Shown: piece after piece, positions 3,220 to 52,796 of the stretch
How positions within the stretch are numbered: position 1 is the stretch's first letter
Layout of the letters: each line of letters begins with the position of its first letter
DNA from: Diaporthe sp. PMI_573
Lineage: Eukaryota > Ascomycota > Sordariomycetes > Diaporthales > Diaporthaceae
Assembly: GCA_021399435.1 (NCBI GenBank)
Contig: JAJTUP010000006.1
Span: 1,364,001 to 1,428,000 of the forward strand
DNA length: 64,000 bases
Reading direction: 5' to 3'
The notes under the pieces: generated by a model
Told to the model about the DNA's origin: nothing
What the model saw: the letters and a program-made list of their open reading frames with translations, nothing else
Databases searched by the model: none
Position numbers and translations under genes: made by a program

Positions 3220-5590
3220 CTACATTCCAGGAGTGAAGCCCTCGACTTTCACATCCCACTCTTCCGGGAAATGCGGGCCCGGCTCTTCATCCCACCCCCC
3301 TGCCATCATAGATGCTGCCTCAAGTTAGCTTTGATCATAGTCCGAGCACGACAAAATCAACAAACTTTTCTGTGCAACGGACTACGAAATCAGAGCAGGA
3401 ATGGGCTTGTACGTACTAGCAAGCAGCAGAGATGCAGCATTAGGAAAGTAAGGCGTCGGAACACGAGACCCTCCTACTGGATATCCTGCATCGTCGAACT
3501 GGAAGACGGGATGCAGAAGATACGCAATGGCCTGTTCTACATCGCCCAGCCTCATAGAGTTCATAGCCAGCAGGGAAAAATCCCATCCGTAAGAGTCTTC
3601 CAAGTCCCAGAGCTCTAGAATCTTGTCGGCGGTGTTTCGGACGATCGTCAGGTTCAAGCCTGGCCCGCTCATCGGAGGCGGCAGCCAGCCGTAAATTCCG
3701 GCCATTGCTGGGTGCTGTGTTGGCTGATATCAGCGACTGATGGCAGTGACAGACGCATCAGCTCAGAAGTGGCCAGTGCTACTCACATCATTTGTAGTTG
3801 CGTTATCGCTCCACATGTTCGGAATGCCTTCATACACAGGATATGTGTCGTCCACCACCGGCAAAGGCGCAAGCTTGTCCCTAATAGTGAACCAATCCTC
3901 TGGGACAGACTGCCCCTGGCGCTCTTTCCATGCGATAGCAATATCAAGTCCAAATCGCCAGTATGCCAGTTCAAAAGTCGGGTTGATTGTTGCGTTCGGA
4001 TTCGTGTTTTCCGAGACGGGATATATCGGCGGCCCAAGGTTGTACGCACCGGTTGAGTTGTCAAGCCACGGAAACGAGGCCATGAAGTCGGCCGATGCTG
4101 TGAGGATCTCATCCCACCTCTCCAGAGTTGTGTCGTTGGGAAAAGAACGGTATTCCACCTCGGCGAAGTACATAGGATGGGGTTGCTGCCAGATCAACAG
4201 GGAATTGATCTCTCCCGGTGCGCTTCGCCCGCTCGGGTCTGTCATCTTCCCCCAGCGTGCGCCTCTGTAGCCCTGCTTGGCAGCCCTCTCGAATGAGGAA
4301 GGGAGAAATTGGTCGTACATATTGGGCATGCTCCTCCACATCAGGTCAAAGTGGTTCCAGCGGGCGAAGTGAACGAGATGCCAGAAGACCATCTCAAGGT
4401 GGAATTTGCCGTACCATCCGTTGTTAACAAGCCCCGATTCCTGTGGCGGGTAGGAAGATGCCGAATTCACAGCCAGGAGATACTGCGACAGGATGATCCG
4501 TCGCTGGAGCTCGGTGGCATTCGCCGAGTCGGTGGATGTCAGGTCTATGAAAGATCCCGAGCTCCAATACGACTCCCACCAAGCCGTTGACTTAGTGATC
4601 AAGTCGTCAAGAGAAGTATGGGCTGTCGCTCCATCTGGGGAGAAGCTTGCAATCATATCCAGCTTTTCTGACCCAGAGATGGTAAGGAAGTATCGATGAG
4701 TGCCATCCTCTGGTGCCGTGATCTTTCCGTCGCCATCCCATTGTGTCGCCAGATAGTAGCTGTTGTCATCCAGTGTATGTTTAATCACGGCCTGGTTGCC
4801 CTCACTTTCAAGTGATGTTGAGTGATTGCTCGTTGCATTCCACACTCCTACGAAAGGAGCATCAAACTTGTTGCGATCTGAATATGGGAAGTCAAAGAAC
4901 AGGCCGAGAGTACCAGTAGAGAGCAAATCAGACTCGACTTTTACTCCGATGGTGTCACTATCTGGTGCTGCTCGGACCTCAACTGTGATCTTGTTTCCGT
5001 TATATGTGAAATTCGAGTAAATTGTTCCGGACCACAGATCAAGGACTTGTGATTTATCCTGGAGATCGTCTTCACTGACATTTTTACCGCCAAACCATAA
5101 TCCTATGTTTCCTAGGTTCAGCCTCTGGGGGTTCTGGATCAGCCAAGTCGATATATCGTTCTCGCCAGGATTCGGCTGTGCGTAGTTGACGAGTTGCCCA
5201 TCCTCAGAGAAATTCAGTGGTGGAGTCCACCAGTCCATCCCAGTGTAGTCTTGTATCAATCAGTACACTACAGCCAATATCGGAGGGAGAGGGAACCCAT
5301 TTCTCACCATTAATAGAAGTCTGATTCGGGGTTGTTGGCAATGAGAAATTATGCCAGCCCCAAGTAGACATGGTTGCAAAAGGCTTGAAGGTCTGGAGGC
5401 CCGTCACATCCACGCCAAAGGCAAAGTTGCCATTCCCAACTTGCAGAGGTGTTGTGCTTGAACTCGCATTTCGACGGACATTGTACGCATGAACCACTTG
5501 TTGTCTTTGTATGGGTGATGAGGACTTGACCCAGGCAAGATGTAGAATAAATAGGAGCAGCCTGAGATTACGCATGGCGCATAAGATCAT
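3220..5590 (-). CDS. Secreted six-hairpin glycosidase-like protein
   Basis: Secreted carbohydrate-active enzyme of the fungal six-hairpin (alpha/alpha toroid) glycosidase superfamily; the substrate cannot be read from the sequence. Exons on the minus strand: 5308-5590, 3787-5249, 3417-3714 and 3220-3314, giving 712 aa. Introns use GTGAGA/ACAAG, GTGAGT/CACAG and GTACGT/GGCAG. A signal peptide is clear (NLRLLLFILHLAW); a second ATG at 5575 could also start it. Family-like blocks include DYTGMDWWTP, RGARWGKMTDPSGR followed by LLIWQQPHPMYFAEVEYRSF in the toroid domain, and near the C-terminus DSYGWDFSLLAM then SMMAGGWDEEPG. Several N-glycosylation sequons are present. The short last exon is needed to restore the GGW block. 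It is divergent from mob1. Confidence 0.82.
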
Positions 5591-41518: not shown

Positions 41519-42038
41519 GTTTTCCGATAGAGTCCTGGTTGAATCAGGACTATCTGGAATTGGCAGTCGAGACCTTTGTTATCCCGGAGGAAATTCTCAG
41601 CAGTAGAACGGGAGCACAAGCGCAGCCAGGGTCCAAAAATTACGGTATCGATAAGCCTGGGCTTATCTTATCTACTCAATTGGCAGCTTGGTCGAGAGGC
41701 ATTCGACCGGGGGCAGCTAGACAGACAGTGGAACCCAAATCAAGCCGCGAGATCCAAAAAAGACGATCTGGTAAGATCGAGATGTTGAATTTGAAGAAAT
41801 GGCCCCATTGACTGAATATTTGGTCATCGCTCGACGTGGTCGGGCTGCAGCGGCAAAACTGGCTCAGATTGGGAGGCAGGACTTGTCCGAGTGAAATGCC
41901 ACAGCACGGAGACGTGGGAAATACAGGATATATCTAACTCTCGTGCTGTGCGCAACTGAACGTGACGATGTGCTCTCCCGTCCTATAGCTGAGCCAGTGA
42001 GTGCACTATAGCAATAATAAACCATCTCCGCTTATTAA
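41519..42038. other. Intergenic
   Basis: 520 bp upstream of sda1 and downstream of the small mitochondrial-protein gene. No further feature seen. Confidence 0.5.
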
Positions 42039-42598
42039 TCAATGCCCATCGACACCTCCCTGCCCCTTCCAGTAATTTTTATCAACCTTGTCTTCTGCTG
42101 CCGGGCTCGCTCGATCGTGCTAAACAGCGGGTTAGCTTGAGCCCTTGGGGCAAGTGAGAAGTGTGCCACGCTGCAACTTACTTTCTTTTCAAACTCGGCG
42201 TTGTGCCTGTCTACTTCCTCCTGCTGCTCCTTGGTAAGCTTGTCCCTGCCTTGACCTGGAATACTGGCGCTGTTGATCTTGGGCTGTGGAGGTGGGTTCT
42301 CAGAACTCGAGAGAGGTTTGCCGCCGCCGGTCCTGCCCTTAGCACCATCCCCGGCTAGGCGGTCATTGGAGGGGTTGTTCCCGGTGTCGACCTCGTCGGC
42401 TGTCTCCGCATGCTCCTTGGCATCCTTCGAGCGAGAGCCTCCGGACTGAGCAGAAGCTTGCTCGGCTTCCTTGGGGGCTGAGGCTGCGTAGTGTCGTCGG
42501 GCCGAGATGGGAAGGGCTACCCCGGTCCTGAATGTGGAGGTGGAGATGGGCGGGACACGGGCGCCCCGGACCCGGACGCGGAGAGCGAGACGATTCAT
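42039..42598 (-). CDS. Small mitochondrial protein of unknown function
   Basis: Exons 42182-42598 and 42039-42119 (intron GTAAGT to GTTTAG) give 165 aa. The N-terminus is an Arg-rich presequence (MNRLALRVRVRGARV) ending near ISARRHYAAS, typical for matrix import. The middle is hydrophilic and low-complexity (Glu/Ala/Ser/Gly). The end is a conserved-looking block: DKLTKEQQEEVDRHNAEFEK, then spliced HDRASPAAEDKVDKNYWKGQ. Reading through the intron also stays open but destroys this block, so the spliced form is preferred. I recall similar short C-terminal blocks in uncharacterised fungal mitochondrial proteins; function unknown. Its ATG is only 18 bp from the left inverted repeat, which therefore must contain its promoter. 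Confidence 0.72.
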
Positions 42599-43547
42599 TG
42601 TGATTGCTGATGCACTAACGTCCGTCCCTGCGTGGCGAAAAACCCTCCGTGCCGAAAAAAATGACAGGTACTTTGATTTTAAACATGTCGAAAATTCCAC
42701 ACATATCGATGTATCGATGTCTCGCAAACTTTTGTAGAAGGTGTATTCTCTAGCCACTCTTGAGCATTCTGAGCCCCTCTTACTAGAAAATTACCTTAGG
42801 GTTATTGTCCTCGCACCAGATCTATTAAACGCCTCCATTGATAGCAAAAGAGAGTTCCGTTAATATGCTTCCACCATCAAGCTCTTATTGCCTATAAAAC
42901 TAATAAAAAGATTGTATTTAAGCTTTAAAGCCTTGGTACTACGTTAGTAATCGTTATGAGCCTTGTGGCTGTTGTGCTGTCCAGATCTTGATAAAATCGC
43001 GACGTGGAATAGTACTTCGGATGAAAGCTAGTGACGATTTTCGATAATGCGATCCAACTTTCACACAGGCCTCTCCGTGTGGCTGATTTGGAATGCGGCT
43101 GGCGCCAGGGATTGGATTACGTGACCAGGGCTGCTCGGCTCTTGGCAAGCCTTTCTGACTGGACCCGAGGTTCAGCCATCCCCGCCCATGCCCACGCAGG
43201 CTTGTGGTGCGGTAGCCGCTCTTTAGGGTGTTGCATAGACTCACTTGTCGAAGACCATGGTATAATCTTCAGCATCATCATCACAACACGAATCGGGGCT
43301 CCGATACCTTTGCTGGCTGATGCTGAGAGCCATGGCTATTCGCTATGATGCACCAAACCCGTGTCCCAGCTCAAGGCCCAGCCGCAAGTAACAGCCCCGA
43401 GGTGGCTACCTGCAGCCTTGCGATAGCCCTGCCTTAGCCGCAACGTACAAGCTCGAGTTACACTCAGTTCTCACTAGAAGAGCGCCCAACTCTCCGGCTC
43501 AAGTCGAAGCCGTGCCCTCCGTACCGAAGTTCTGATGTACATGCGAC
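42599..43547. promoter_or_regulatory. Divergent intergenic region occupied largely by the left inverted repeat
   Basis: 949 bp separate the ATGs of the mitochondrial-protein gene and the NLR. 562 bp of this is the left inverted repeat, so upstream control of both genes probably lies in or next to repeat sequence. The remaining 370 bp before the NLR has no recognisable gene. Promoter assignment is inferred from position only. Confidence 0.5.
42616..43177 (+). repeat. Left copy of ~560-bp inverted repeat flanking the NLR
   Basis: Starts TAACGTCC and ends at GGACCCGAGGTTCAGCC. It matches the reverse complement of 48070-48631 along its whole length, with an 8-bp indel near 42715 and a compensating difference further in. 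In the first 96 bases I count 7 mismatches, 5 of them transitions. Conserved stretches include TGCGTGGCGAAAAACCCTCC and GAGCCTTGTGGCTGTTGTG. It lies between the divergent mitochondrial-protein gene and the NLR. No open frame of note. Confidence 0.93.
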
Positions 43548-46500
43548 ATGCGACTCCTCAAATACAGTCCCGACGGCGAGCTCGCTGTGACGGAGAATCT
43601 GCCCGACAACGAAAATCTCAACTACGCCATACTGTCGCACACATGGGAGTCTGAAGAAGTCACGTTCGAAGACTTGAAAAACGGTGTAGGGAAGAACAAG
43701 GCCGGCTTCCAAAAGATTCGGTTCTGCGCGGAGCAGGCAAAAAGCCACGGCTGTCAACACTTCTGGGTCGACACTTGCTGCATCGACAAGTCGAACCATG
43801 TCGAGCTGAATGAGGCGATCATCTCGATGTTTCGTTGGTACCGCAATGCAGCCAGTTGTTACGTATATCTGTCGGATGTCTCGGTTGCTAGCTGTGGGCG
43901 TAAGCGGAAGAGGAAGCAATCTGAGCCATGGGAACGGGCGTTCCGGGACAGCAGATGGTTCAAACGAGGATGGACGCTCCAAGAGCTTCTTGCGCCAGCA
44001 TCGGTCGAGTTCTTCACACGAGAAGGCCAAAGACTTGGTGACAAGAAATCGCTGGAGCAACCGATCCACGAAATAACAAAGATAGCCATGTCAGCACTTC
44101 GAGGCACCGACCTTTCGCAGTTCGATGTCGACGAACGATTCAAATGGGCAGAGAGTCGCGAGACCACACGTGAAGAAGACTGGGCATACTGTCAACTCGG
44201 CATTTTCGGCGTCTCCATGCCGGCCCTATACGGCGAAGGGAGGGAGAATGCTATTCGCAGACTCAAAGGGGAAACCAGTAGGGAAACCAGTAGTACTCTC
44301 TTCGTTCACGACAAACTCCCTGCCGCCGACGGCGCCGCTTTTGACTCCCAAGCCGAGGATGCCGGCCCGACCTGTCACCGCGACACACGAGTCGATCTCC
44401 TCCGCCGGATCCGCAAATGGGCCGACCAGCCGGGTGACCAGCCCCAGACACACGCCATCTTCTGGCTTAACGGTATGGCCGGCACCGGAAAGTCCACCAT
44501 CTCCCGCACCGTTGCCCGCCACTTCGCAGACCGCCGCCGCCTCGGCGCTAGCTTCTTCTTCAAGCGAGGCGACGGCGACCGCGGCAAGGTGACCAAGTTC
44601 TTCACCACCATCGCCGCCCAGCTTGTTTCGGCGGTACCCGGCGTGGCCGCGCATGTCAAGAATGCTATCGAGTCCGACCCTAGCGTGGTTGGGAAAGCCA
44701 TGCGGGAACAGTTCGAGAAGCTTATCTTCGAACCCCTGTCGAGGATCACACCGGAAGCATCGCAAGCCTCTGGTTTGGTTATCGTCGTCGATGCCCTGGA
44801 CGAGTGTGAGCGCGATGACGACGTCAAGCTCATCATCAATCTCTTTTCTCGCGCCAAGAGCCTAGCGTCTCTCCGTCTGAGAATCCTCGTCACAAGCCGG
44901 CCCGAGCTCCCGATCCGGCTTGGCTTCAGCGCCATCCACGGCAAGTACCAGGACCTCGTTCTCCATGAGATACCGGAGCCTGTGGTCGAGCAGGACATAT
45001 CAGCCTACCTACAGTCTGAGCTCGCTAGAATCCGAGACGAATATAATGCTTCTGTTTCGGAAGAGCGCCAGTTAGCCTCAAGCTGGCCCGACCAATCCAC
45101 CATACAGATTCTCGTCAAGATGGCAGTGCCACTATTTATCTTCGCCGCCACCGTATGCCGCTTTCTTGCCGACCGAAAGTGTGGTAACCCGGATAAGAAG
45201 TTGAAGACGGTCCTAGAATATCGAACGAAAAGCCAGGAATCTAAGCTCGATAACACATATCTACCTGTATTAGAACAGCTGCTGGTCGATCTTTCCGGCC
45301 GCGAGAAGGCACAGGTCCTCGACCAGTTTCGAATGATTATCGGCTCCATCGTTATCCTCGCCAGCCCTCTCTCGACTCATTCTCTAGCGCGGATGCTTGG
45401 GATGTCTACAGACACCATTGACGACATACTAGATTGGCTTCATTCGGTTCTAAGTATTCCTTCAGCATCCGGGTCTCCCGTGCGGCTGCTACACCTATCG
45501 TTCCGCGACTTCCTGCTCGATCCCGAAAAGCGCGAGACGAACCCGTTCTGGGTCGACGAGCAACAGACACATGAGCGGCTAGCCGCACACTGCCTCCGCG
45601 TAATGAGCGGATGCCTACGGACTGATATTTGCGGACTGCAGGCGCCTGGCACACCTCGGTCAACCATCAGCCCCAAAACTGTCGAAGCAAGCTTGCCGTC
45701 TGAAGTTCAGTATGCCTGTCTCTACTGGGTCTATCACGTGGAACAGAGCCAAATTCTGCCTTGCGATGGAGATCAAGTTCATGATTTTCTGTACCAATAC
45801 TTTCTCCAGTGGCTAGAAGCGTTAAGCATTATAGGAAGGGTCTCAGAAAGCATCCGCATCATAAAGACGTTACAATCCCTCGTCAAGGTAAGTCGTCTTA
45901 GTTATTTACGTATTATAAGCTAACTCTAATTCGTATCTAGGTTAATACACAGCTGTTTAACTTTCTAAATGATGCTCTACGCCTAGTGCTTGCCAATACT
46001 TTTATTATTGACTCTGCGCCTCTCCAGCTATACTCGTCTGTACTTGGCTTTGCGCCACAAAGGAGTATAGTACGGGGAAAGTTTGAAGAGATAATTCCTA
46101 GTTGGATTTCGTTACGGCCAGAGGCTGAGACGAACTGGAGTCAATGTCTACAGATCCTTGAGGGCCATAGCGACTCGGTCTGCTCCGTCGCGTTCTCGCC
46201 CGACTTGGCGCTCGTGGCGTCGGGCTCTGGGGATAAGACGGTACGGCTCTGGCGCTGCGATACGGGCGCGTGCGTGCAGGAACTCAAGGGCCATAGCAAC
46301 TCGGTCAGCTCCGTCGCGTTCTCACCCAACTCGGCGCTTGTGGCGTCGGGCTCTGGGGATAAGACGGTACGGCTCTGGCACTGCGATATAGGCACATGCG
46401 TGCAGGAACTTAAGGGCCATAGCAACTCGGTCAGCTCTATTGCGTTCTCGCCCAACTCGGTGCTTGTAGCGTCAGGCTCCTATGACAAGACAGTACGGCT

Positions 46501-47884
46501 CTGGTGCTGTGATACGGGCGCGTGTATACAGGAACTCAAGGGCCATAGCGGCTCTGTCAGCTCCGTCATGTTCTCACCCGACTCGGTACTCGTAGCATCG
46601 GGCTCCTACGACAAGACGGTACGGCTCTGGTGCTATAATACAGGCATGTGCATGCAGGAACTCAAGGGCCATAGCGACTCGGTCAGCTCTATTGCGTTCT
46701 CACCTAACTTGGCGCTTGTAGCGTCGGGCTCCTACGACAAGATAGTACGGCTCTGGCGCTGCGATATGGGCATGTGCGTGCAGGAACTCAAGGGCCATAG
46801 CGACTCGGTCAGCTCCGTCACATTCTCACCCAACTCGGCGCTCGTGGCGTCGGGCTCCTACGACGAGACGGTACGGCTCTGGCGCTGCGATACGGGCGCG
46901 TGTGTGCAGGAACTCAAGGGCCATAGCAACTGGATCAGCTCCGTCGCGTTCTCACCCAACTCGGCGCTCGTGGCGTCGGGCTCTGGGGATAAGACGGTAC
47001 GGCTCTGGCGCTGCGATACGGGCACATATGTGCAGGAACTCAAGGGCCATAGCGACTCAGTCAGCTCCGTCACATTCTCGCCCGACTTGGCGCTCGTGGC
47101 GTCGGGCTCTCACGATAAGACGGTATGGCTCTGGCGCTGCGATACGGGCGCGTGCGTGCAGAAACTCAAGGGCCATAGCAACTGGGTCAGCTCCATCGCG
47201 TTCTCACCCGACTTGGCGCTCGTGGCGTCGGGCTCTGGGGATAAGACGGTACGGCTCTGGCGCTGCGATACGGGCGCGTGCGTGCAGGAACTCAAGGGCC
47301 ATAGCAGCTCCGTCAGCTCCGTCGCGTTCTCGCCCGACTCGGCGCTCGTGGCGTCGGGCTCCTACGACGAGACGGTACGGCTCTGGCGCTGCGATACGGG
47401 CGCGTACGTGCAGGAACTCAAGGGCCATAGCGACTCGGTCAGCTCCGTCGCGTTCTCACCCGACTCGGCGCTCGTGGCGTCGGGCTCCTACGACGAGACG
47501 GTACGGCTCTGGCGCTGCGATACGGGCGCGTGCGTGCAGGAGGAGAACATGGGCGCATCTGTTACCGATCTTTCATTTGAACCCGATGGTTCACGGCTGC
47601 TCACCAGTCTTGGTGCGATTGCTCTACTGAAGCTGCCGTTCGTGGGTCAAGCCGCCGCAAACCACGTATCTGCTGCGCCGGTCGTGCCTGAGTGGAGGAA
47701 CGGACATCGCGTCGGCTACGGCTTCAGTCGAGACCGTAGCTGGATTACGTGGCACGGACATAACTTGCTATGGCTACCGGCCGAATTCCGGCCCGATATG
47801 TCGGCTGTATCGGGATGCACGGTCGTGATAGGTTGCAGCTCGGGAAGGGTCATTTTCATTCGACTTTCATTCGACTCAACATAG
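43548..47884 (+). CDS. HET-NACHT-WD40 NLR (HNWD / het-E-like)
   Basis: Fungal NOD-like receptor of the type that controls heterokaryon incompatibility (Podospora het-D, het-E, het-R are the named relatives). Exons 43548-45887 and 45941-47884 (53-nt intron, GTAAGT/ATCTAG) give 1427 aa. Residues 1-225 form a HET domain: LNYAILSHTW, HFWVDTCCIDKSN and RGWTLQELLAPASVEFF. The NACHT NTPase follows with Walker A GMAGTGKST near 310 and Walker B LVIVVDALDEC near 415. A helical linker runs to about 850. Eleven 42-residue WD40 repeats occupy about 855-1316, and a divergent propeller-like tail ends at 1427. No frameshift or stop is present, so the gene looks functional. It is the only gene within the inverted-repeat pair at 42616-48631. 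HET is expected to be the cell-death effector and WD40 the recognition part. Confidence 0.95.
46163..47548 (+). repeat. 11 tandem 126-bp WD40-coding repeats
   Basis: Eleven head-to-tail units of exactly 126 bp (42 codons), each encoding GHS..SVSS.AFSP..ALV, then ASGS.DKTVRLWRCDTG, then .CVQELK. Neighbouring units are almost identical at the nucleotide level. Changes concentrate at a few codons: after GHS (D, N, G, S), the next residue (S or W), the residue before FSP (A, T, M), after FSP (D or N; L or S), after ASGS (G, Y, H), and in the TGAC/TGTC turn. Confidence 0.97.
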
Positions 47885-48069
47885 AAGCAGTGAACAGCTG
47901 TCTAGGCTTTAGCGTGTCTCATCAACTGTAGTTATATTTTTTTTTTCATAACTTTGTAAAAGAGAGTTCAAGAGTAACGCGCAACTATATAGTATTTTGT
48001 ATTGTAATTCTAGATGGTTCGAGTGGTTTCCATTTGACATCACGACTTGCCTCAAGGCCGGGCCAACTC
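47885..48069. other. NLR 3' flank inside the inverted-repeat unit
   Basis: 185 bp between the NLR stop and the right repeat. It contains a T10 run near 47938 and AT-rich sequence consistent with a 3' untranslated region. Confidence 0.5.
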
Positions 48070-48631
48070 GGCTGAACCTCGGGTCCAACCAAAAAGCCAA
48101 ACAGTTTTGTCACATGAGCCAGCGCCAGGGTCACGTGATTGCACACCCTGGCACCAGCCACATTCCAATCAGCCACAAAAAGTAGCCTGTGTGAGAGTCG
48201 TTTCGCACTAACCAAAATCGTCACTGGCCTTGATCTGAGGTACTGATCTGCGCAGCGATTTTGTAAAGATCTGGACACCACAACAGCCACAAGGCTCGTG
48301 ACAATTACTGGCGTAGTAACAAGGTTCTAAAGCTCAGATATAACCTTTTTGTAAGTATTAGAGGTGATAAGAGCTTGATGGCGGAAGCATGTTGACGGAA
48401 CTCTCTTTTGCTCTTAACGGAGACGTTCTATAGATTAGGCGCGAGAACAACAATGCCAAGGTAATTTTCTGGTAAAAGGGGCTTAGAATGCTTAAGAGTG
48501 GCTAGAGAATACGCCTTATATACAAGCTTGGGAGACGTCGACATGTGTGGAGTTTTTGACATGTTTAAATTCAAAGTACCGGTCATTTTTTTCGGCACGG
48601 AGGGTTTTTCGCCACGCAGGGATGGACGTTA
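48070..48631 (-). repeat. Right copy of ~560-bp inverted repeat flanking the NLR
   Basis: Reverse-complement partner of 42616-43177, ending GGACGTTA at 48631. Same overall length (562 bp). Immediate outer flanks (GATGCAC on the left, AGCAAAC on the right) are not a direct repeat, so no target-site duplication is visible. Confidence 0.93.
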
Positions 48632-50527
48632 AGCAAACCGTGTGCCGACTGTACAGGTGTGGGTATGTGGGCAGTGGGTAAGGTGAGATATGCGGTCGAT
48701 GCTGTAGCTCGGATGCCTGTCGTCTGCGAGGCTGTGCAAGGGCTTAGACGTTCGTTTCGCAGCACTTGGTGAAGAAGAATGTTTTACTTGACGGGCAGTG
48801 GTTGAGTGTTGTAGATTGGGTCTGTGGTGTTGCTCAATGGATGCAATGGAATCAAACTCAACATGCCCCCTTGTTAAAGCCGGTTGGAGCTCTTGCCTGC
48901 TACTCTAATAGCTCTGGACTATCAGTGATGATATCATTCCGTAGACACGAGGGTGATCAATGTCTCAACCCGTCCCTCACTGCGGACCTGAGGCGATGAC
49001 GCAACTCGCTGTGCCGGCAAATACAGGTGCTACAACGGACCAAGTACATAGAACTAGACCAAATCCCGTCTGCCGATCTATCAGCCCAGAAGTAGGTGAG
49101 CAAGGGCGATCTGATGTTTTCGAAGGCCTCCAAAAGGAATACTGTGTAGGTGATGAATCCTAGCCTCAATGTCAGACTGACTGTCCGGCACGGGAAAAGT
49201 GGCTTATGATGGGTGTTCCAACAAGCATATGCACTTCATCTTGTGGAAGTGGTGTGCATGCGCTTCGAAACTCAATTCAAGCTTGGGGGCATGGCCACAC
49301 TGCGGGGCGTCTGTTTGTTTGTCTGTTTGATTGTGATATTTGCAGGTAGGTAGGTACTTTGTTTGCATACCGGCACGCATGTTTTTGACTTGAATGAAAA
49401 CGGTCCCGAGGTCGAAAGGCCGAAAGGTCTAGATTCCAATCATTCTCGGTCAGCGGACAAGGACCTGAGCGAGGTTATCGATCCCACTGATGATACAGGT
49501 TCGTCAAGCCTGCAGGCGGATATGGCTTGCAGTCTGCCCAATGCAGGCCATTTATCCACATCGGCCCCAGCGCCCCTGTCCCTGTGCCGTGACGGATGGC
49601 CGAGGCACTGCTGCCTGCGTCGGGTGGAAGCACGACACCCCCCATGCTCTCGGACAGGTAGGCAGAGCGAGGCCACCTGCTGCGTGACCGCATAATGGAC
49701 TATTCGAAACTTGGGCGGCCTGACTTTCTTACACTTTGGTTTCTGCTAATGCCTGGGTCTAAGTCCATATTGTGTCAATACCTCGACCGCACAGGAGCTG
49801 CTGCACAGGACCACAGGATCCCGAGCAACGCCGTGGCTTCAGTGCTCCGGCCACGGCACCCACCTCTTCCTTCCAATTGCTCGAGGCGTCACGGCTGGCT
49901 GGGATCCAAATTTGGGGGTTTTGGATTGTCAGCAGCATGTGGCCGGAGGCGGAGGAGCTGTATCTCGAGGGAGGAGCAGAGCAGTGTACGCACAGTGTAC
50001 TGTAGGCGTGCAGCAAGGCTTCCCGATCGGAAGGAAGGAAGGGGACAGCCCCCAACCGCTGCCTCCCTCCCCACCCGCCTGGACTTCTGCTAGCGCTCCT
50101 AAGCGATCCGCTAACCTCGAATCAAAAGTTCAGCTCCGACTCCTTCCCACCCCCTCCCGGCTGCACCTTGCACACCCCCCCCTCTTCAGTCCAACCAACA
50201 TGCATCGCAAGTGCCACGGTCCCGCACCAGGGCCACACGAGGCCTGGCAGAGCCTCGCCCTCACATTGTACAATAAACATCCTGCGCCCCTTTGGCCGAG
50301 TAGCAATGCATTTCCTCTGGTCTCCCCGTAGCTGCCAAAATGCTGTGCTGAACTGCAGCCCCAGCCCCAGTGCCCCGATACAAGACTTGTCTCTCTTTGG
50401 ATCCCGCTCTCGACTCTGCTTGCTAAAGTGACCCGTCGTCCCTGCTTCAAAAGCCCTACGGGTCCCTCTCCACTCTCGCCCAGAGCTCTCACTCCCGGCC
50501 CCGAGCGGCACATCGCAGAGCCTCGCC
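48632..50527. other. Gene-poor stretch
   Basis: 1.9 kb between the inverted-repeat unit and the ankyrin gene. A GTTT/GTCT-rich patch lies at 49310-49330 and GTAGGTAGGTA near 49348. The last 400 bp are CCT/CCC-rich, a likely leader/promoter. No gene supported. Confidence 0.4.
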
Positions 50528-52796
50528 ATGGCCGACGTTGCGACTCCCGACTCTGTCGCCGCCAACTCTCCAAGTGGCGGTGGTGCGAGGATCGGCCGGC
50601 CTCCACAATGGACAGAGTCACGGTCCAGGAAACTGGCCAGGCTGTACATGTACACCACCCTGCCGATGGAGAAGATCATCAAGGCCCTCTTTCCCAACGA
50701 CGATGTCAAGTATGAACCCCGCAAAGTTGCTGGCTCCATCTGCTCCCTTCCACGTGCGATGCTGATGACGGCTCAGGAAGAACTCGGCACAGAAGACCCT
50801 GCACAAGATGGTCGGTCATGATCCCCGGCCCTTACGGCCCGTCGACAGGAATGACATGAACACCCGCTTCAAGCTGCTCCACAAACGCAGCCAGCGTCGA
50901 CGCCAGAGCGACGGAACGCCCGTTGACCACGAGGTCGGCGTCATGGCCGGGTTGAAGGAAGAGCTCGGCACCCCGGCTTTCTCAGAAGTATCCCGTTTTG
51001 ACGATTCCGCCACCCTCAGGAGCCCCCAAATGGACATGCGGTTTGACTTTGCCTCACCAAGCACGATGGCTTCAGCCTCGCCGGGCCCTGTTTGGTCTGC
51101 CTTCCCAAAGGACGACGATCAACTTCCCTTTCAGCCTCCCTTTCCCCGCCCGCCTCGTAACGATACAGTCTTCACCACGTCCACTCAGATGAGCACGGAC
51201 AGTATCAAAAGCCTGAGGAACCGTATCAGCGTCTCGACAGTCTTTGCTAAGCAGGTGTCTGTCCTGATGAGCAGGCTCACGATCGGTAGTTCTGAGAACC
51301 TCGGGAACTCGCCATGCCGGACGCCTTCTGATTTCCCAACACATCCGAGCCCAATCCCAAACGGCCCAACGCCGCACCCTGGACTCGCTGTGCCTGGCGA
51401 TTTCATAATCTCCAGGAAGTACGTGTCCCAATGCCATGCGCAGAAACATTTCGTCAAGTCCTCGGGCGTAGATGGTGGCCTCTGCTGGTGTAGCATCGCG
51501 GACGAGACAGCGGATCTCTCCGAGGCCTTTTATATCATCGACAGGGGCGAACTTTGTGATCGGGCAATAAGTGTCCGGCAAGGATCTGAAGACGCATCAT
51601 CTGTGGACCGCTTCGGCAACACTCCTCTACACATCTTCGCCGCATCGGACAGTCAGTCTGATATTGAAACGACATTTCATCTGCTCCAATCCGGGCGCGC
51701 AGATCCCAGCAGGACCAATAACGCACACCAGACGTTTCTTCATGTTCTGAGCCCCATGTGGTTTTACGGCGCGGATGACCTCAACGTCCCCCTATACAGG
51801 CTCTTGAACTTCCTCTACACAAGCCACAAGAACTTGATATATGCCCCCGATGTCTATGGTCGAACCTTTTTCCACCAACTCGATCGCTTCGTGCCCGATC
51901 CCAAAATTATTGAAAACATTAACCAGCACTATTGGTCTTCAATCCCCCGAGACGCATTTGGTATCAAGCCACCCTCTCATGTTGTCGATGCGTCCTTTGC
52001 GCCTCCAAGACGCACCGGCACGACAGCACTCTCGCCCCTGGCCGAAGAGGCCCCAGAGGATGATTTCACGACCAGAGACATGGGTTTAATATCTCTTGTG
52101 ACCGAGGCATACAACAACCCCTTTTTGGAGGATGCTGAAGGCCGGAATGGACTGCACTGCTTAGCAGAGATGCATTTTATCACCAGCAGTCCCAGCAGTC
52201 CAGATCCCAACACCCCAAACCCATCACAACCACCGACCACTAACACCAAGGGTTCACTCAAGCGAAAGCACGGCAGGGACGACGCAGAACGTATCAAGCC
52301 TATCACCCAGAGACTCCAATATCTCCAAGGACTCTTGACGCCGGTGAATCAGACAGCACCACCTGACGTCAATCACTACGACCACAAGGGCAACACCGTC
52401 CTCATAGCCTTCGCAGCACAACTTTCTGACGACCAAGACGACAAGAGCGGTCAGCACATCGGGAGGATTCTGGATTTGCTCATCGCGAAGGGGGCAATAC
52501 TCGACGCACGGAACCGCCAGGGTGAGACGGCGCTCCTGGTCGCTGCGAAACGTGGAAACAAGCAGGTCGTCAGCAAGTTGCTCGACAGAGGTGCCAACAT
52601 CCACGCACGAGACAAGAATGGAAGGGCTATCATGGCTATTATAGATGCACAGATTGCACTTTGTTCAAAGGATCTACCGTCGTACGGGCGATTGGAGGCT
52701 GTCAGAGCAGCAGTGCTCGCCAAGAAGTTGGAGGAGAAGGAGGACGAGCCCAGTTTCTTGGATGAGTGGACCTGGGCTCCGAGACAACAGACTTGA
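50528..52796 (+). CDS. Large ankyrin-repeat protein with Clr5-like N-terminus
   Basis: Exons 50528-50709 and 50777-52796 (donor GTATGA, acceptor GCTCAG) give 733 aa. The first 80 residues form a small helical domain (RIGRPPQWTESRSRKLARLY, then MEKIIKALFPNDDVKKNSAQ) completed across the intron. It resembles, but is not proven to be, the Clr5/HTH domain found at the start of many fungal ankyrin proteins. A Ser/Pro-rich disordered region follows. Ankyrin-like units are visible at DRFGNTPLHIFAA, DVYGRTFFHQL, DAEGRNGLHCLAEM, DHKGNTVLIAFAA and RQGETALLVAAKRGNKQVVS with LLDRGANIHARDKNG. No membrane segment or signal peptide. Likely nuclear or scaffold role by architecture only. Confidence 0.85.

What the first reader, a model, noticed from the sequence alone, without database searches (positions are those of the whole stretch)
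42616..48631. An intact HET-NACHT-WD40 NLR enclosed by ~560-bp inverted repeats
Seen: 42616-43177 and 48070-48631 are reverse complements over their full 562 bp, and the only gene between them is the complete NLR. In the outer 96 bases I count 7 mismatches. Known: HNWD genes (Podospora het-D/E/R) drive allorecognition and cell death and expand in fungal genomes, but I know of no standard description of them as inverted-repeat-bounded units. Inference: this may be a 6.0-kb mobilisable or duplicable NLR cassette, either a non-autonomous element with long terminal inverted repeats or an inversion-prone locus. No transposase and no target-site duplication are visible.
Basis: partly seen in the sequence, partly recalled or inferred. 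Interest (0 to 1): 0.88.

Follow-up and report, generated by a model that had tools for sequence, protein, structure and literature searches.

The report
NLR immune gene between transposon ends
In the fungus Diaporthe sp. PMI_573, one complete gene of the family that in other fungi tells self from non-self lies between two inverted DNA ends whose relatives, all starting at the same sharp edge, sit singly at nine other places in the genome, so the gene is likely the cargo of a small mobile element that would need a moving enzyme from elsewhere.

Summary
The inverted repeat is real: 42616-43177 and 48070-48631 match over exactly those coordinates (80% identity, E 5e-144; outer 100 nt 92%), the only inverted pair of that strength in the window, with one intact HET-NACHT-WD40 gene inside. 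It is not a lone local duplication. The arms belong to a family with 11 ends in this 83.7-Mb genome (Diaporthe sp. PMI_573). All begin at the same base (TA, then mostly ACGTC), the 8 arms examined carry two tandem 12-mers in register, and the DNA outside is unrelated (pairwise identity 0.26 outside, 0.84 inside). The terminal ~100 nt are kept better than the rest in 28 of 28 pairs, as expected of transposon ends. At C158, C139, C183 and C217/C109 single arms adjoin decayed HET or TPR gene parts; two copies are 99% identical, gene end included. The NLR is patchy: its NACHT is 90% identical to a Xylariales protein, 58% to the own-genome paralog compared. Best reading: a non-autonomous, TA-flanked long-TIR element carrying an NLR, working like ToxTA of wheat pathogens. 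Unshown: an empty site, a transposase, a second two-ended copy, movement. A composite of two single-ended elements remains possible.

The parts
42616..43177 (+). left arm (TIR); outer end at 42616, read inwards
   Evidence: blastn pair with the right arm, E 4.8e-144; same family as 9 ends elsewhere
48070..48631 (-). right arm (TIR); outer end at 48631, read inwards on the minus strand
   Evidence: nhmmer 526 bits with a profile that includes it
42616..42617 (.). TA at the left boundary (possible TA target-site duplication or last bases of the TIR)
   Evidence: invariant in 9 of 9 ends compared
48630..48631 (.). TA at the right boundary
42631..42642 (+). first 12-mer CGTGSCGRAAAA of the left end (position 16 of the arm)
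   Evidence: positions 16 and 33 (34 in C52) in 8 of 8 arms, at most 1 mismatch
42648..42659 (+). second 12-mer of the left end (position 33)
48605..48616 (-). first 12-mer of the right end
48588..48599 (-). second 12-mer of the right end
43548..47884 (+). HET-NACHT-WD40 (HNWD) NLR gene, 1427 aa, one predicted intron
45888..45940 (+). predicted 53-nt intron (GTAAGT...CTAG)
   Evidence: not supported by RNA data
46161..47541 (+). about 11 tandem 126-bp WD40 units; 300-nt windows 76-91% alike to the reference copy
   Evidence: 11 WD40 stretches
42038..42595 (-). neighbouring gene outside the element, ATG 20 nt from the left arm; N-terminus reads like a mitochondrial presequence (judged from recall)
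   Evidence: no Pfam family

Best explanation
The 6,016-bp stretch 42616-48631 is likely a non-autonomous DNA transposon with unusually long (~560-nt) terminal inverted repeats that carries one intact HNWD NLR gene as cargo. Shown: two inverted arms of one family; a single NLR gene between them; a genome-wide family of ends with one exact outer boundary (TA, then mostly ACGTC), two tandem 12-mers at positions 16 and 33, unrelated flanks and a terminal ~100 nt kept better than the rest; single arms elsewhere joined to HET- or TPR-gene fragments. Inferred: the 12-mers would be the binding site of a transposase supplied in trans; that transposase would cut at both ends and insert the unit at TA, copying TA as in Tc1/mariner elements; the NLR would be spread as cargo, and its patchy distribution would reflect such moves; the protein is predicted to work as other HNWD receptors do, sensing with the WD40 repeats and signalling cell death through HET. 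All other copies found are single-ended, so the family is probably inactive or nearly so in this strain.
For: Arm pair E 4.8e-144, the only such pair in the window. DNA searches with either arm find 7 places (7 of 7 candidates scored), each matching from arm base 1. Patterns bring 4 more ends, C109, C183, C217 and C38: one search gave 11 hits (reversed-pattern control 1), one search gave 12 including the doubtful C195 (control 0), the RIP-tolerant one search gave the same 11 (control 0). Mean pairwise identity of 9 ends (duplicates C147 and C109 left out): 0.264 over the 30 nt outside, 0.842 over the first 25 nt inside. First 100 columns better kept than the rest in 28 of 28 pairs, e.g. winL-C139 0.88 v 0.60, winR-C217 0.79 v 0.56. 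Two tandem 12-mers in register in 8 of 8 arms. C183 and C217: 872 bp 99% identical including coding DNA of a TPR gene end, 0.30 over the 60 nt outside. C158: 5' flank and first 43 codons of a related HNWD gene, then an arm in right-arm orientation, as in an internally deleted or rearranged relative. C139: a TPR gene end running towards the arm. Patchiness: P0001 is a one-member cluster; NACHT 230/255 identical to Monosporascus sp. MG133 (Xylariales) but 142/246 to the PMI_573 paralog P0060. Control gene SDA1, 1.1 kb from the element, has unnamed clusters of 49 and 10 members at 95%.
Against: No second copy with both ends: all 9 ends elsewhere are single, by pattern over the whole genome and by blastn/nhmmer in the 1-20 kb fetched around each. 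No transposase between the arms and none found with these ends. No empty site: no related genome was available. TA may simply be part of the TIR. A 562-nt TIR is far longer than the 20-169 nt quoted for Tc1/mariner (PMC12506042). The arms are only about 80% alike, so any insertion is old, or the arms have different histories. The better-kept terminus is weak for the RIP-affected C143 (e.g. 0.79 v 0.77 with C158). At C52, C38 and C147 no NLR piece was found on the inner side (C147 has a Tf2-1/chromo retroelement ORF there); at C143 only a DUF6604 gene.
Confidence: 0.66

Rival explanations
1. Composite: two separate single-ended pieces of the family happen to lie in opposite orientation on either side of an NLR. 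The right arm came with the NLR (as at C158 and C139), the left arm is the remnant of another copy.
For: Every other copy found is single-ended, and where a gene is recognisable it runs towards the arm, as for the window's right arm; the window's left arm is the only arm seen at the 5' side of a gene. The two arms are no closer to each other than to arms elsewhere.
Against: Eleven ends in 83.7 Mb; two within 6 kb, with outer ends outward and one gene between, is unlikely by chance. No trace of a second gene end in the left spacer 43131-43547: against the fetched loci its only match (E <= 0.5) is C158's HNWD 5' flank.
Confidence: 0.14
2. A single-ended mobile element: the ~500-nt arm is the one constant end of a Helitron- or LINE-like element that drags upstream gene parts along, and the window holds two insertions.
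For: One constant end and variable inner junctions at all 9 places outside the window; a PIF1-like helicase piece (a domain of Helitrons, recalled) adjoins the TPR gene part at C183.
Against: Helitron ends (TC...CTRR, recalled) are absent. Inner junctions abut other transposon-like DNA: a DDE_1 remnant with its own copies elsewhere at C158, a Tf2-1/chromo ORF at C147, an ORF that I read as hAT-like at C217 (no family search run). That suggests decay rather than a mechanism. It leaves the window's inverted pair unexplained.
Confidence: 0.11
3. The arms are ordinary flanking or regulatory DNA of NLR genes, spread by segmental duplication or ectopic recombination.
For: Arms tend to lie 3' of NLR-type genes; C52/C147 and C109/C217 are plain segmental duplicates.
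Against: Homology stops at one identical nucleotide at independent loci with unrelated flanks. In 19 further loci of the best HET-NACHT matches in this genome (match and 1.5 kb each side) no arm is seen, only one 26-nt match at E 0.04, and none of the 11 ends lies on those contigs.
Confidence: 0.05
4. An inversion switch: the arms recombine and flip the NLR.
For: Inverted geometry only.
Against: About 80% identity; no recombinase gene in the unit; the flip would not alter the gene, which keeps its own spacer on each side.
Confidence: 0.02

Closest known systems
ToxTA (formerly ToxhAT), 14-kb transposon carrying ToxA in wheat-pathogenic Dothideomycetes (PMC12506042, passages read)
   Same: A cargo gene between terminal inverted repeats, TA at both ends, no transposase firmly assigned, patchy across distant fungi
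   Different: ToxTA has 74-bp TIRs, a TA duplication shown against empty sites, and also travels inside a Starship; here TIRs are ~560 nt, the cargo is an NLR, and no empty site or movement is shown
Tc1/mariner superfamily (Fot1/pogo-like elements of fungi)
   Same: TA at both boundaries, inverted ends; subterminal repeated motifs occur in some members (recalled)
   Different: No DDE transposase inside; TIR 562 nt against 20-169 nt quoted in PMC12506042
HNWD / NWD allorecognition genes of Podospora anserina (het-D, het-E, het-R; PMC1805685, passages)
   Same: HET-NACHT-WD40 order, highly alike tandem WD40 units
   Different: The term 'inverted repeat' does not occur in that paper's main text; one pseudogene (NWDp3) is preceded by a transposon relic
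Starship elements with NLR cargo (PMC12134995, passages)
   Same: A mobile element carrying an NLR (one sesA-NACHT-WD40 gene in a Gaeumannomyces element)
   Different: Starships are large and led by a tyrosine-recombinase captain; here 6 kb and one gene
MULE / Pack-MULE elements (recalled)
   Same: Long TIRs and captured genes
   Different: 8-11-bp target duplication not seen at this insertion

Membership tests
HNWD NLR genes | HET + NACHT + WD40 repeats in this order | tested here: met
   PF06985 5e-12, PF24883 1e-31, PF05729 1.5e-6, 11 WD40 stretches
HNWD NLR genes | highly alike tandem WD40 units | tested here: met
   126-bp spacing; ten of the eleven 300-nt windows 76-100% to the reference, the first, at the array edge, 62%
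HNWD NLR genes | triggers incompatibility / cell death | not testable with these tools
   needs genetics
Non-autonomous TIR transposon | inverted terminal repeats with exact outer ends | tested here: met
Non-autonomous TIR transposon | several copies with the same ends and unrelated flanks | tested here: met
   11 ends, 9 outside the window, 7 of them independent after removing the duplicates C147 and C109; these copies show one end each
Non-autonomous TIR transposon | other copies with both ends | tested here: not met
   no opposite arm by blastn or nhmmer in the DNA fetched around the other ends (about 1-20 kb each), nor by pattern in the genome
Non-autonomous TIR transposon | empty site in relatives | not testable with these tools
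   no related fungal genome held
Tc1/mariner | TA target-site duplication | tested here: inconclusive
   TA at 9 of 9 ends, indistinguishable from TIR without an empty site
Tc1/mariner | DDE/D transposase between the ends | tested here: not met
   the NLR is the only gene recognised inside; short ORFs on the other strand overlap it and were not scanned
Tc1/mariner | TIR of 20-30, at most ~169 bp | tested here: not met
   562 nt; range from PMC12506042
MULE / Pack-MULE | 8-11-bp target-site duplication (recalled) | tested here: not met
   flanks CTGATGCAC and AGCAAACCG share no such repeat (read by eye)
Starship | tyrosine-recombinase captain at the 5' edge | tested here: not met
   no second gene recognised in the 6-kb unit; neither the window's other genes nor the genome were searched for captains
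Helitron | 5' TC, 3' CTRR hairpin, no TIRs (recalled) | tested here: not met
   both outer ends read TA, mostly TAACGTC

The most novel reading that the evidence does not exclude
A transposon lineage specialised in NLRs: one set of long terminal ends repeatedly carries allorecognition or immune receptors of different build (HET-NACHT-WD40 and TPR-type), moving them within genomes and between fungal orders, so that part of the fungal NLR repertoire is supplied by a dedicated mobile element.
Probability: 0.3. Interest if true: 0.85.

Novelty: new variant of a known kind. Interest (0 to 1): 0.6.

Why it matters
Fungal NLR repertoires differ strongly between related species; a survey of 4,613 Sordariales NLRs found the variation only weakly tied to genome defence against repeats and pointed to clustering as one factor (PMC12258605, passages). 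A small element that carries a whole NLR would give a direct route for gain and loss of receptors and would put an allorecognition gene, which can isolate its carriers from others, on mobile DNA. The arms also give a ready probe (the TA-flanked end and its two 12-mers) for testing other genomes.

Tried and rejected
Inversion switch: rejected as above. DDE_1 remnant at C158 as the element's own transposase: rejected, because its DNA has copies elsewhere (C196, C30, C141) whose homology ends about 130 nt before the HET piece and begins where another repeat stops. Arms as a standing promoter of HNWD genes: rejected (19 paralog loci). Arms as a known RNA: no Rfam match at 42500-48750. C195:224624: only the terminal 18 nt match, left out of all counts. 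A 17-mer with 3 mismatches to the end near the HET gene at C188 (L036) and a 15/16-nt match between the C158 spacer and 48038-48053 (E 0.8) are treated as chance. RIP as the cause of arm divergence: 59 transitions against 28 transversions between the arms, CpA/TpG contexts only mildly frequent; inconclusive. Arm tree: support 24-87, so no claim on branching order. Literature: eight searches of the open-licence PMC library listed no paper that by title or abstract start describes an NLR within a TIR element; subscription papers are not covered.
Full report
Where it is. The window is part of contig C174 of an 83.7-Mb, 217-contig fungal genome. The NLR protein matches at 100% a protein of Diaporthe sp. 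PMI_573 on a contig of the same length, 1,836,676 bp, so that is the organism.

The observation. Arms 42616-43177 and 48070-48631 are inverted repeats at exactly the stated coordinates (80.1% over 573 columns, E 4.8e-144; the only inverted pair at E <= 1e-5 in the window). The outer 100 nt are 92% and the inner 375 nt 81% complementary. Inside is one gene with HET, NACHT (NPHP3_N) and 11 WD40 stretches, open over 1427 aa with one predicted 53-nt intron. GC3 of its two parts (0.64, 0.72) is in the range of four other genes of the window (0.63-0.73).

The arms are a family with one exact end. DNA searches of the genome with either arm gave 7 places (7 candidates, 7 scored), every one matching from arm base 1. 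Patterns of the terminus added C109, C183, C217 and C38: one search gave 6 hits (control 0), one search gave 11 (control 1), one search gave 12 including C195 (control 0), and a pattern tolerant of C-to-T and G-to-A change gave the same 11 (control 0). The C217-type arm as query found only C109, C183 and C217; a C139-arm query found 6 of the 11 and nothing new. C147 duplicates C52 (99.8% over 1496 bp, flank included) and C109 duplicates C217 (identical over 1226 bp, flank included), so 7 loci outside the window are independent. C195 has only the terminal 18 nt and is not counted. nhmmer with a profile built from 8 of these arms aligns them over up to about 495 positions in register (C139 to 445, C158 to 466, truncated C147 to 339); the arms in the profile match it by construction, while C183, C109 and C147 were not in it.

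Why these are transposon ends. Over 9 ends, mean pairwise identity is 0.23-0.26 in the 60 nt outside and 0.84 in the first 25 nt inside; TA is invariant at the boundary. Two 12-mers CGTGSCGRAAAA stand at positions 16 and 33 (34 in C52) in 8 of 8 arms, with at most one mismatch each. In 28 of 28 pairs the first 100 columns are better kept than the rest, strongly between distant members (C139-winL 0.88 v 0.60; C217-winR 0.79 v 0.56; C38-winL 0.73 v 0.56) and only slightly for the RIP-affected C143 (0.79 v 0.77 with C158). For C183 and C217 the inside is 99% identical for 872 bp while the outside is unrelated from the TA outward (0.30 over 60 nt): a recently copied unit with a sharp end. The other end of both copies is lost, beside an ORF that I read as hAT-like (C217; no family search run) and a PIF1-like piece (C183).

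What lies inside the other copies. C158: the 5' flank and first 43 codons of an HNWD gene (70% at DNA level to the window over 274 columns), then about 230 nt, then an arm in right-arm orientation; upstream is a DDE_1 remnant that has its own copies elsewhere. C139: a WD40 fragment and a TPR ORF that ends about 235 nt before the arm match, which here reaches only model position 445; in the window the stop is 241 nt from position 495, so the two spacings are not strictly comparable. C183 and C217/C109: end of a TPR gene, about 131 nt from the arm. C143: a 746-aa ORF without Pfam match, preceded by a DUF6604 stretch, running towards the arm. C52: the inner-side frames scanned have no Pfam family (not every frame was scanned). 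C147: a Tf2-1/chromo retroelement ORF beside the truncated arm. C38: no frame above 80 aa in the 2.6 kb read on that strand; C38 and C143 are AT-rich with RIP-like indices. So at 4 of 7 independent outside loci (3 lineages, since C183 and C217 are one) the arm adjoins HET- or TPR-gene parts. That the TPR pieces are NLR C-termini is inference: at C183 TPR_12 and TPR_10 exceed their cut-offs and TPR_NPHP3 does not, at C139 TPR_12 and TPR_10 do and DUF7779 does not, and no nucleotide-binding domain was found there. For scale, the genome has 272 first-look candidates for NPHP3_N, 150 of them scored; at an assumed few kb each this is some 2% of the genome, so the association is probably not chance, but this is a rough estimate.

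Age and history. The window's arms differ from each other as much as from other arms (winL-winR 0.829, winR-C158 0.838, winR-C52 0.828), so they are not a recent local duplication. This fits an old two-ended element and also fits a composite.

Patchy cargo. In two searches the window's NLR stands alone in its 90% cluster; the next are metagenome proteins (75-79%) and Monosporascus sp. MG133 (73-75%); the only other Diaporthe entry named in the 120 best is a PMI_573 paralog, P0060, at 52-53%. The best paralogs in the genome itself are 54-57% over long stretches, up to 66% over HET alone. By region, NACHT is 230/255 identical to Monosporascus, another order, and 142/246 to P0060; HET is 190/245 and 143/244. 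The neighbouring housekeeping gene SDA1 has unnamed clusters of 49 and 10 members at 95%, presumably Diaporthe, and Cytospora at 86%; no Monosporascus is named among its 120 best, which reach down to 67%. Only about a quarter of proteins carry names, so unnamed Diaporthe orthologs cannot be excluded, but no listed hit other than the protein itself exceeds 79%. The pattern fits horizontal movement, or very old retention with many losses.

Insertion context. The left end lies 20 nt from the ATG of a minus-strand gene whose N-terminus looks like a mitochondrial presequence (judged from recall of such sequences). If the element inserted there, that gene's former upstream DNA is now 6 kb away, so the left arm would have to act as its promoter, or the gene is silenced. 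This is untested.

Mechanism, shown and inferred. Shown: the ends, their boundary, their motifs, their spread, the single intact NLR. Inferred: a trans-acting transposase recognising the tandem 12-mers, insertion at TA, spread of the NLR as cargo. The closest worked example is ToxTA, a TA-flanked, TIR-bounded, probably non-autonomous carrier of one important gene (PMC12506042, passages). NLRs are also known as Starship cargo (PMC12134995, passages). In eight searches of the open-licence library I saw no listing that describes an NLR within a TIR element of this kind.

Limits. No related fungal genome could be searched, so no empty site, strain polymorphism or second two-ended copy could be sought outside this genome. 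Genome searches give lower bounds. DNA around the other ends was read only for about 1-20 kb.

Noticed in passing
window 42038-42595 (-): Neighbouring gene with a mitochondrial-presequence-like N-terminus starts 20 nt from the left arm; the arm may have replaced its promoter.
   Followed up: partly
P0001-P0006: A small, patchy set of HET-NACHT proteins (NACHT 86-90% identical to the window's) from metagenomes, one Monosporascus and this Diaporthe; against Monosporascus the WD40 part diverges far more.
   Followed up: partly
L041:2151-2396 and 3300-3545 (G000 C37): Another HET-gene paralog has a 249-column, 76% inverted repeat on its 3' side, with no match to these arms.
   Followed up: no
L046:2352-3200 (+) (G000 C183): One open frame fuses a PIF1-like helicase piece to a TPR gene end, a possible chimera at a truncated copy.
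   Followed up: no
G000 C143:806600-807221 and 812279-812900: 622-nt, 84% inverted repeat near the C143 arm, and a 488-column repeat whose other copy (798052-798537) ends just outside the arm.
   Followed up: no
G000 C195:224604-224624 (-): Terminal 18 nt of the arm match exactly inside an open frame, with no further homology; chance or a residual footprint.
   Followed up: partly
window 49145-49187 and 51646-51688: Short 43-nt, 77% inverted repeat downstream of the element.
   Followed up: no
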